Assembly: GCA_018896525.1 (NCBI GenBank)
Contig: JAHIMR010000048.1
Coordinates: forward strand, 124,001 to 188,000
Source of the DNA: Actinomycetota bacterium
GTDB lineage: Bacteria > Actinomycetota > Geothermincolia > Fen-727 > Anoxymicrobiaceae
Direction of reading: 5' to 3'
DNA length: 64,000 nucleotides
The position numbers were made by a program, and so were the translations under genes. Of this stretch, positions 45,382 to 47,678 are shown piece after piece (the first letter of the stretch is position 1; the number at the start of each line of letters is the position of its first letter). Under the pieces are notes generated by a model. It worked only from the letters and a program-made list of their open reading frames with translations, was not told the origin of the DNA and made no database searches.

Positions 45382-45410
45382 TTGACTTATTGCTTGTACT
45401 GCTATACTAT
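45382..45410 (+). promoter_or_regulatory. Candidate promoter for the IscB-associated RNA
   Basis: TTGACT (45382-45387) - N17 - TACTAT (45405-45410). Confidence 0.45.
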
Positions 45411-45424
45411 TGGCTTGTACTGCT

Positions 45425-45720
45425 GTTCTTCTCGAAGGAGGGTGGCCGTCAACCACCCCTCTCTGAAGGGAAGGGGCTTGGAGAAAACTCCGGGCCCCGG
45501 TTGACTAGGAGGCTTGGAACCTCGAAGGAGGTGACATGCAGAAGTTATCGGAGAGAAACACATACACACCCCGGGATGCATCCCAAGTTCCGGGCTCTGT
45601 GGCGCCTGGTCTAAACAGCCCTTCAGGGGTACGGGGCAGTGACACGCGCTTCAAAACCTCCGATAACAACTCCGAAGGGACCCTGACCGGGAGAGGACGC
45701 CCGGGGCGGAACTCGAGAGT
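45425..45720 (+). ncRNA. HEARO / omega RNA-like structured RNA upstream of iscB
   Basis: Hairpins gagggtgg-ccgtcaa-ccaccc..ctc, ggag-aaaa-ctcc, gagg-cttggaa-cctc, ggga-tgca-tccc, and a perfect 10-bp long-range helix GTTATCGGAG (45544-45553) / CTCCGATAAC (45658-45667), immediately 5' of the IscB PLMP domain. Confidence 0.75.
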
Positions 45721-47002
45721 ATCCGCCGTTTACGTCCTCAACATGAGAGGGGAGCCTCTGATGCCGACGGCTCCGAGGAAGGCGAGAGTCCTTCTCGTGA
45801 GCGGGCGGGCCAAGGTTGCGAAGAGAACCCCCTTCACCGTTCAACTCCTTTATCCGACCGGAGAAACGAAGCAACCCGTCTCTCTGGGCGTTGACGCGGG
45901 ATACTCGAAAGTTGGGCTGTCCGCGGTTGTTCCGGGAGGCCAGGAGCTCTTCTCTGCCGAGGTCGAGCTCCGAAGCGACATCGTTAAGCTCATCTCCTGC
46001 CGGCGGACTTACAGACGGGCCCGCAGGGGCCGGAAAACCTGGCACCGGAAGCCCCGGTTCCTCAACCGGAAAAAACCGGAGGGCTGGCTCGCCCCCTCGA
46101 TTCAGCACAAGCAGGGCAGCCACCTGAAGCTCGTAAGGGAAGTCAAGAAGATTCTTCCGGTGTCAAAGATAACGGTCGAGGTCGCCTCCTTCGACATCCA
46201 GAAGCTTCAGAACCCGGATGTTTCCGGGAAGGGGTATCAGGAAGGCCCGCGGAAAGACTTCGAAAACGTCCGGGAGTACGTCCTTTTCCGGGACAATCAC
46301 ACCTGCCGAAACTGCAAAGGGAAGTCCGGCGACCCGGTGCTTCAGGTTCATCATGTCGTTTCGAGGCAAACCGGCGGGAACAGGCCGGAAAACCTTATGA
46401 CCGTCTGCAAAACGTGCCACGACTCGCACAACCGGAGGGAGACCCCGATAACCGCGAAACCCGTGAAGGGGTTCCGTCCGGAAGCTTTCATGAACACCGT
46501 CCGTCGGAGGTTGGTCTCTCTTCTCGGGGAAGAGAACGTCTGTCCGGTCTCGGCGACCTTCGGATATATCACCAAGTCAAACAGAATCGCGCTCTCCCTC
46601 CCGAAGTCCCACGCGAACGACGCATTCGTAATCGCCGGGGGAAACGGGGAAGAACGGGCTTCGGACACCTTCTTTTCAAAGCAGGTCAGGAGCAACAATC
46701 GGAAGCTTTTCAAGGGCGTTCGAAGCCACCTGAAGAACACCGCTCCGAGGTTTGTCCAGGGGTTTCAGAGGTACGACAAGGTTCTTTACGCCCCGGACGG
46801 AAACGGTCCGGAAGAGTGCTTCATCTTCGGCAGGAGGTCTTCCGGGTACTTCGACGTTCGGAAAGTGGACGGAACGAAGGTCCACTCTTCGGCTGCCGCC
46901 GATGGCTTGGTTCTGCTTGAATCGGCGAAAACACTCTTGACGGAAAGGAGGACGGCGGCTTTCCTCCCCCACCTGACGGAAGGGGTCTCCAGCCGCCTTT
47001 AG
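45536..47002 (+). CDS. iscB: IscB RNA-guided HNH/RuvC endonuclease (OMEGA nuclease); conserved protein begins at about 45728
   Basis: PLMP domain VYVLNMRGEPLMPTAPRKARVLLVSGRAKV; RuvC-I LGVDAGYSKVGLSAV; Arg-rich bridge RRTYRRARRGRKTWHRKPRFLNRKKPEGWLAPS; RuvC-II KITVEVASFDIQKL; HNH CRNCKGKSGDPVLQVHHVVSRQTGGNRPENLMTVCKTCHDSHN; RuvC-III KSHANDAFVIAGG. Confidence 0.93.
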   Translation: MQKLSERNTYTPRDASQVPGSVAPGLNSPSGVRGSDTRFKTSDNNSEGTLTGRGRPGRNSRVSAVYVLNMRGEPLMPTAPRKARVLLVSGRAKVAKRTPFTVQLLYPTGETKQPVSLGVDAGYSKVGLSAVVPGGQELFSAEVELRSDIVKLISCRRTYRRARRGRKTWHRKPRFLNRKKPEGWLAPSIQHKQGSHLKLVREVKKILPVSKITVEVASFDIQKLQNPDVSGKGYQEGPRKDFENVREYVLFRDNHTCRNCKGKSGDPVLQVHHVVSRQTGGNRPENLMTVCKTCHDSHNRRETPITAKPVKGFRPEAFMNTVRRRLVSLLGEENVCPVSATFGYITKSNRIALSLPKSHANDAFVIAGGNGEERASDTFFSKQVRSNNRKLFKGVRSHLKNTAPRFVQGFQRYDKVLYAPDGNGPEECFIFGRRSSGYFDVRKVDGTKVHSSAAADGLVLLESAKTLLTERRTAAFLPHLTEGVSSRL

Positions 47003-47003
47003 G

Positions 47004-47678
47004 ATGAAGCTCAGCAACGTCCTGAAATCCCGGCCCGGGCTCAACACCGCAATCGGAGTCGCCTTCGCGGTCGTCGCGGGACTGCTGCTGCTGGGCTACG
47101 TTTCGCAGTTGTTCGGCGGCGAGCGTGGCGGCCCGTTGCTGGACATCCCGGTGGCCACACATGACATAGGTATCGGCAACATCATCGATGGTTCGATGAT
47201 GACCACCAGGAAGATCGCCAGCGAGTACCTGGTCCCGGGAACGGTCCGGGAACGCGATGGTATAGAAGGGTCCAGGGCGCTCAGGTTCATCGGCAAAGGT
47301 GAGCCTTTCACCTCCTCGTCTGTTTCCGGCGGCGATGGTCCGGGCACACTTGCCTCACGGATACCCCCTTCCATGAGGGCGTACTCACTGAGGCTGAGCC
47401 CGCTCGCCGGCTCCAGTGGTGACATCCGCCCGGGGGACCACGTGGACGTCCTTGCCACCGTCGGCGGCGACCCGCCCAGTACGGCGACAATACTCACCAA
47501 CAGGCTTATCCTGAGCGTGAGTTCCATGGCACCCGACGGGGAAGTGGATGCGTCACGGGGCAATGCGTCGGCCATAACACTGCTGGTGTCCCCTGATGAG
47601 GCGGAGCGGCTTGCCCGGGCGGAGTTCGAAGGCGAGATATCCATCTCCCTGTGCCCGCTGGCCGGTGTTGACCAATAA
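47004..47678 (+). CDS. CpaB/SAF-domain pilus assembly-type protein
   Basis: N-terminal TM, IPVATHDIGIGNIIDGSMMTTRKIASEYLVPGTV (SAF), IRPGDHVDVLATV, ITLLVSPDEAERLARAEFEG. Confidence 0.75.
   Translation: MKLSNVLKSRPGLNTAIGVAFAVVAGLLLLGYVSQLFGGERGGPLLDIPVATHDIGIGNIIDGSMMTTRKIASEYLVPGTVRERDGIEGSRALRFIGKGEPFTSSSVSGGDGPGTLASRIPPSMRAYSLRLSPLAGSSGDIRPGDHVDVLATVGGDPPSTATILTNRLILSVSSMAPDGEVDASRGNASAITLLVSPDEAERLARAEFEGEISISLCPLAGVDQ

What the first reader, a model, noticed from the sequence alone, without database searches (positions are those of the whole stretch)
45536..45730. The omega RNA region is open in frame with IscB and has its own strong Shine-Dalgarno and ATG
The IscB core begins around VYVLNMRGEPLMP (about 45728), but the frame stays open upstream to ATG 45536, preceded by 'cgaaggaggtgac' (near-consensus SD at good spacing). 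No ATG/GTG/TTG lies in frame just upstream of VYVLN; the next ATG (45743) would remove the first PLMP strand. Either IscB carries a ~64-aa extension encoded by the guide-RNA scaffold, so one transcript must be mRNA or guide, or the true start is non-canonical. This could be a translation-versus-guide switch in cis.
Basis: partly seen in the sequence, partly recalled or inferred. Interest (0 to 1): 0.75.

Follow-up and report, generated by a model that had tools for sequence, protein, structure and literature searches.

The report
IscB gene starts inside its guide RNA
In this lineage of IscB elements (transposon-borne relatives of Cas9), the scaffold of the guide RNA also contains the ribosome-binding site, the start codon and the first ~60 codons of the nuclease gene, so one stretch of RNA appears to serve both as guide and as message; this is conserved across many distant bacteria and archaea and can be tested at the bench.

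Summary
Confirmed and extended. The window holds an IscB element at 45448-47003. Its omegaRNA (Rfam HEARO, 124 bits) spans 45448-45727 including two terminal hairpins, so the 64 codons between ATG 45536 and the IscB core are entirely guide scaffold. 34 analysed fused loci (cores 42-69% identical to the window's) share this, with no in-frame stop where ~17 are expected (P about 1e-8). In held-out genomes, RNAs with the recoded nexus carried the embedded ORF in 14 of 16 loci; RNAs with the ordinary nexus in 0 of 16. The nexus 5' strand is rewritten from CCUA-type to GGAGG, a Shine-Dalgarno whose 3' partner co-varies (GGAG/CUCC, GGGG/CCCC); the AUG usually lies in stem-loop 2. The guide fold thus buries the ribosome site, which implies, but does not prove, a translation-or-guide switch. 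The peptide is not conserved (substitutions flat by codon position; predicted disordered): pass-through coding. In some relatives the embedded ORF is a separate leader ending at the IscB start. IscB's stop abuts or overlaps the start codon of the interrupted host gene in 15 of 29 family loci but 1 of 19 canonical ones, suggesting a ribosome relay. Translation itself was not measured.

The parts
45448..47003 (+). complete IscB element (omegaRNA + IscB ORF), inserted directly before the ATG of a CpaB-like host gene
   Evidence: joined flanks ...cgaaggagggtggcc|ATGAAGCTC resemble the uninterrupted upstream regions of orthologues L184, L186, L191
45428..45447 (+). left flank: presumptive guide segment; contains the host gene's original RBS (AAGGAGGG 45435-45442)
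   Evidence: sequence; guide role from known IscB biology
45448..45727 (+). omegaRNA (HEARO) scaffold including terminal hairpins
   Evidence: RF02033 124.4 bits 45448-45687; terminal hairpins to 45727; fold z = -4.5
45508..45512 (+). nexus-stem 5' strand GGAGG = family-conserved Shine-Dalgarno
45670..45673 (+). nexus-stem 3' strand CUCC, the SD's pairing partner in the guide fold
   Evidence: pairs 70-73/283-286 of A1, 100% paired, co-varying
45527..45531 (+). second SD (GGAGG) in a stem-loop-2 insert, paired with CCUC in the fold
   Evidence: also in L002 and L004
45536..45538 (+). start codon ATG at the base of stem-loop 2
   Evidence: homologous ATG in the fused loci
45536..45727 (+). codons 1-64 of IscB = omegaRNA scaffold (disordered, pass-through N-terminal extension)
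45687..45704 (+). terminal hairpin 1 of the omegaRNA (coding)
45705..45727 (+). terminal hairpin 2 (coding); canonical start-codon position in its loop is TCG here
45536..47002 (+). IscB ORF, 488 aa; core 45728-47002; residues aligning to RuvC/HNH positions retained
47000..47006 (+). IscB stop TAG, one base, then host start ATG: stop-start junction at the right end of the element

Best explanation
This is an IscB OMEGA element of a lineage in which translation of IscB begins inside the omegaRNA. Shown from sequence: (1) the nexus 5' strand is an SD, followed by an ATG at stem-loop 2, and the ORF runs through the rest of the scaffold, both terminal hairpins and into IscB; (2) frame and RNA helices are both maintained while the peptide is not. 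Inferred: (3) ribosomes that load at the nexus SD unwind the scaffold and make IscB with a disordered ~60-aa tail; (4) when the RNA folds as guide, nexus pairing hides the SD and stem-loop 2 hides the AUG, so each transcript is either message or guide, and IscB binding to the folded scaffold would shut off its own translation; (5) because the ORF ends at the host gene's start codon, ribosomes crossing the element can re-initiate on the host gene whose own RBS was displaced by the insertion. The confidence given is for translation starting inside the scaffold (1-3); about 0.5 for 4 and 0.35 for 5.
For: Two copies in this genome with the same SD/ATG/frame. Bimodal split of HEARO+IscB loci: the frame is open back to an ATG 61-89 nt from the RNA 5' end in one group, with 2-11 stops in each other frame; most of the rest have several in-frame stops and a start just before the core. 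Zero stops against 17.4 expected over 16 disjoint pairs; pair-unique stops 2/32/37 in frames 0/1/2. SD relocated: 32/34 fused loci have it before the embedded ATG and 5/34 before the core, canonical 19/25 before the core, p = 3e-6; 12/34 have no ATG/GTG/TTG near the core. Held-out genomes: 14/16 versus 0/16 by locus, 8/8 versus 0/16 by genome; 7/7 fused held-out loci in frame, one of them via GTG. RNA: 95.1% of pairs kept, 24/37 with compensatory changes, covariation 0.524 versus 0.193 shuffled; nexus GGAG/CUCC, GGGG/CCCC, GGCG/CGCC, GGGA/UCCC. Solo copies in one archaeon: distinct indels in multiples of three 15/25 after the ATG, 4/18 before it, p = 0.015.
Against: No proteomic, ribosome-profiling or RNA data. 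Loci are related and partly from the same genomes, so p-values assume more independence than exists. Some fused loci keep TTG or ATG at the canonical position near the core, so a second start is possible there (not in the window, where it is TCG). Indels in distant fused pairs are not enriched for multiples of three, although net frame is kept. L013 has a stop before the core with an ATG just after it. Steps 3-5 are inference, and the relay fits only about half of the loci.
Confidence: 0.85

Rival explanations
1. The frame is open only because the RNA sequence is conserved; IscB is translated from a non-canonical start near the core.
For: Codon-position substitution rates in the extension are flat (0.178/0.175/0.188), as expected of RNA constraint; the extension is predicted disordered.
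Against: Stops absent where ~17 expected; the two other frames collect stops freely. SD moved from the core to the embedded ATG. Most canonical HEARO RNAs have several in-frame stops. The possible start codon in the terminal hairpin has become TCG/ACG/CCG in many loci. The held-out test.
Confidence: 0.08
2. The extension is a functional protein domain selected for its amino-acid sequence.
For: Recurring motifs such as MQKL..TYTP and GQDLRV in many loci.
Against: Those motifs coincide with conserved RNA helices and hairpins; flat codon-position rates against 0.187/0.135/0.416 in the core; residues 1-62 have pLDDT below 50; no PDB match.
Confidence: 0.05
3. The embedded ORF exists mainly to carry ribosomes across the element to the downstream host gene (element-long translational relay); IscB fusion is one way of doing this, a separate leader ORF another. 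This is compatible with translation starting inside the scaffold and differs in what it is for.
For: Solo elements without IscB keep the ORF, and in 7 G079 copies it stops exactly at an ATGA at the right end, in most of them the start of a long host ORF; both sister-genome solos also end at an ATGA. IscB stop within 4 nt of the host start in 15/29 family versus 1/19 canonical loci, using three different registers. Leader ORFs end next to the IscB start in L013, L017, L020, L021 and copy65.
Against: About half of family loci and many solo copies end 30-200 nt short of the junction; solo ORFs may simply be inherited.
Confidence: 0.35

Closest known systems
Canonical IscB-omegaRNA (OgeuIscB, PMC9640706) and HEARO nucleases (PMC9755519)
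   Same: Same nuclease domains and same HEARO scaffold upstream with a 5' guide
   Different: There the RNA is described as non-coding or 5' UTR and IscB starts after it; here start codon and SD are inside the scaffold and ~60 codons of the ORF are scaffold
DtIsrB omegaRNA with SD in its terminal hairpin (PMC9581776)
   Same: omegaRNA fold and protein binding can cover the nuclease's SD; the authors suggest regulation of expression
   Different: There the SD lies at the RNA 3' end with the CDS immediately downstream; here the SD is the nexus strand in mid-scaffold and the CDS crosses the RNA
TnpB omegaRNA made from its own mRNA (PMC10278001)
   Same: Guide RNA overlaps the nuclease mRNA, so one transcript must serve both
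   Different: TnpB overlap is at the 3' end of the gene; here it is at the 5' end and includes the initiation site
NTGA translational coupling of neighbouring genes (PMC12548453)
   Same: Overlapping stop/start (ATGA, TGATG) as at the element-host junction
   Different: Here one partner is a transposable element inserted at the host start codon
IStrons (PMC4227781)
   Same: A transposon that carries an RNA-level device making insertion tolerable
   Different: IStrons splice out with a group I intron; here the proposed device is translation through the element

Membership tests
IscB (OMEGA nuclease) | PLMP, RuvC with bridge helix, HNH domain organisation | tested here: met
   NF040563 338 bits (cut-off 175), RRXRR and HNH Pfam hits; IscB structures are the top PDB matches
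IscB (OMEGA nuclease) | Catalytic residues present | tested here: met
   D120, E215, H273, D362 are invariant in the alignment of 18 and lie in the expected RuvC/HNH motifs; activity not testable
IscB (OMEGA nuclease) | RNA-guided DNA cleavage | not testable with these tools
   needs biochemistry
HEARO/omegaRNA (RF02033) | Score above gathering cut-off and conserved fold | tested here: met
   124.4 bits against 83; covariation
HEARO/omegaRNA (RF02033) | Non-coding RNA lying 5' of the nuclease ORF (usual description, not part of the Rfam model) | tested here: not met
   scaffold 45536-45727 is in frame with IscB and under stop-free constraint; translation itself not measured
TnpB/omegaRNA | TnpB nuclease with 3'-overlapping RNA | tested here: not met
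   protein is IscB, RNA at the 5' end
Translational coupling (termination-reinitiation) | Stop and next start overlap or lie within a few nt | tested here: met
   TAGGATG in the window; 15/29 family loci
Translational coupling (termination-reinitiation) | Downstream translation depends on upstream translation | not testable with these tools
   needs reporters

The most novel reading that the evidence does not exclude
A bifunctional guide/messenger RNA: nexus and stem-loop 2 double as an SD/AUG-hiding switch that IscB itself closes, while an ORF running from inside the guide RNA to the last bases of the element hands ribosomes to the host gene, so the host gene depends on continued translation of the transposon.
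Probability: 0.3. Interest if true: 0.88.

Novelty: new variant of a known kind. Interest (0 to 1): 0.74.

Why it matters
A Cas9-ancestor nuclease whose guide scaffold is also its own 5' coding sequence would be a natural RNA under simultaneous structural and coding constraint, with an obvious hypothesis for how guide supply and nuclease supply are balanced on one transcript. It bears on annotation: one ortholog-selection pipeline trims N-terminal insertions whenever a downstream start exists (PMC13180657), and here often none exists. It offers a directly testable case for the open question of how OMEGA elements divide one transcript between guide and message, and a possible route by which start-codon insertions stay tolerable.

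Tried and rejected
Indel multiple-of-three test on distant fused pairs: uninformative (15/63 against 10/44; alignment gaps too noisy); it gave a signal only for the solo copies of one genome. Codon-position test: a third-position excess was looked for, none was found, so the idea of a conserved peptide was dropped. SD enrichment in left flanks as proof of RBS displacement: weak in fused loci (8/24 against 4.7 by shuffling, P = 0.09), clear only in the mixed copy set. Searching relatives of the window genome: only the sister genome of its genus carries HEARO copies, both solo. Literature: the full-text searches found no description of a start codon inside an IscB omegaRNA; the 2009 HEARO paper and the 2021 OMEGA paper were not held, so prior mention there cannot be excluded.

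Full report
What is there. The window carries an IscB element at 45448-47003. The omegaRNA matches Rfam HEARO at 45448-45687 with 124.4 bits, and the IscB core (NF040563, RRXRR, HNH) begins at residue 65 of the ORF 45536-47002. The best structural matches are IscB structures, and the residues aligning with RuvC and HNH catalytic positions are invariant across 18 relatives. Two terminal hairpins (45687-45704 and 45705-45727) fill the space up to the core, so the whole extension is scaffold.

Element boundaries. Joining the flanks gives ...ctgctgttcttctcgaaggagggtggcc|ATGAAGCTCAGC, which resembles the upstream regions of orthologous CpaB-like genes in related genomes (L184, L186, L191). The element therefore sits between the host gene's RBS and its ATG. 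The second copy in this genome (L002) sits the same way before another gene starting ATGAAG.

Conservation of the arrangement. Relatives were collected from genome and viral contigs, HEARO was located in each, and more copies were taken from the same genomes. Loci split in two. In one group the IscB frame is open through the scaffold to an ATG 61-89 nt from the RNA 5' end, with none of the stops that fill the other two frames. Most of the other group have several in-frame stops and a start codon just before the core. In 34 fused loci the typical sequence is TGAyyAGGAGGC..ATGcag(a/c)agtta, with SD-like sequence before the embedded ATG in 32 and near the core in only 5; canonical loci have it near the core in 19 of 25.

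Is it more than RNA conservation? Over 16 disjoint pairs, the observed number of substitutions placed at random would create 17.4 in-frame stops; none is seen (log10 P = -7.9; -7.6 if substituted positions are kept fixed), whereas the other frames show 32 and 37 pair-unique stops. The rule that a purine-rich GG-type nexus followed by a start codon goes with a long embedded ORF, and the ordinary nexus with none, came from the first data set and was then tried on loci from genomes not used before: 14/16 against 0/16 (8/8 against 0/16 by genome), and all seven held-out fused loci were in frame, one through GTG. Against a functional peptide: substitution rates in the extension are equal at the three codon positions, unlike the core; AlphaFold gives residues 1-62 pLDDT below 50; there is no PDB match. 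The frame is kept; the peptide is not.

The RNA is still an omegaRNA. RNAalifold on 23 fused-locus RNAs gives 37 pairs, 24 with compensatory changes. With that structure 95.1% of cells pair against 77.8% in shuffles and 28-40% in slid controls (the structure was derived from the same alignment, which favours it over the slid controls). Canonical nexus strands are CC(U/A)A-type and UUGG; in this family they are GGAG/CUCC, GGGG/CCCC, GGCG/CGCC or GGGA/UCCC. The 5' strand has thus become an SD with its pairing retained. Stem-loop 2 is a short helix (GCAU/AUGC and co-varying forms) whose 3' strand usually contains the AUG; where the strand is AAGC or ACGC the ATG lies in the loop instead. In the window an insert adds a second SD, also paired (CCUC/GAGG).

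Variants. In L013, L017, L020, L021 and copy65 the embedded ORF is a separate 55-67 codon leader ending within about ten nt of the IscB start. L053 and L084 are fused; L085 appears to start at TTG. On the IscB tree the fused label needs 6 changes against 18.4 shuffled, and most unlabelled rows inside those groups turned out to be leader-type or fused. One archaeal genome (G079) has 52 HEARO matches, most of the copies examined lacking IscB; 26 of 36 aligned solo copies keep the frame open for 58 codons (0 and 3 in the other frames), and distinct indels are multiples of three in 15/25 cases after the ATG against 4/18 before it.

The other end. In 15/29 family loci, against 1/19 canonical loci, the IscB stop overlaps or abuts the start codon of a long downstream ORF, in several registers (ATGA, TGATG, TAGATG, TAGGATG). 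Seven G079 solo ORFs stop exactly at the right-end ATGA, as do both solo copies of the window's sister genome at an ATGA opening the next gene. NTGA overlaps are the commonest spacing of coupled genes (PMC12548453). This suggests, but does not prove, that ribosomes crossing the element re-initiate on the host gene.

How it most likely works. One transcript from the host promoter carries guide, scaffold, IscB and host gene (inference). A ribosome loading at the nexus SD destroys the guide fold; a folded scaffold, especially when held by IscB, hides SD and AUG. That is a translation-or-guide choice in cis. Known parallels are the SD in the terminal hairpin of DtIsrB's omegaRNA (PMC9581776) and TnpB's guide cut from its own mRNA (PMC10278001). 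No held paper describes a start codon inside an IscB scaffold; one orthologue-curation protocol trims N-terminal insertions when a downstream start exists (PMC13180657).

Limits. No expression data; loci are related; many are MAG contigs; a second start near the core remains possible in those relatives that keep TTG or ATG there, though not in the window. The 2009 HEARO and 2021 OMEGA papers could not be read here.

Noticed in passing
L044 and L123-L164 (genome G079): One archaeal genome of about 1.7 Mb has 52 HEARO matches; most copies examined are short elements without IscB, many inserted exactly before host start codons (ATGA).
   Followed up: partly
45383-45425: Two copies of a GCTTGTACTGCT-like motif upstream of the CpaB-like gene recur upstream of its orthologues in the family; a candidate regulatory or promoter motif.
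   Followed up: no
L003 and L004 (sister genome G001): Two solo HEARO elements without IscB keep the embedded ORF; in L004 it continues through non-element sequence to an ATGA overlap with the next gene.
   Followed up: partly
45432-45441 and 45522-45531: The host RBS in the left flank and the embedded second RBS share TCGAAGGAGG; probably coincidence, since copy L002 lacks it in its flank.
   Followed up: no
L010 and L053: omegaRNAs enlarged to about 300 nt by inserts that keep the IscB frame.
   Followed up: no
L086: Viral contig with an IscB element and two group I introns within 2.5 kb.
   Followed up: no
L036: A HEARO copy ~315 nt upstream of an IscB whose adjacent RNA is not detected as a separate HEARO match.
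   Followed up: no
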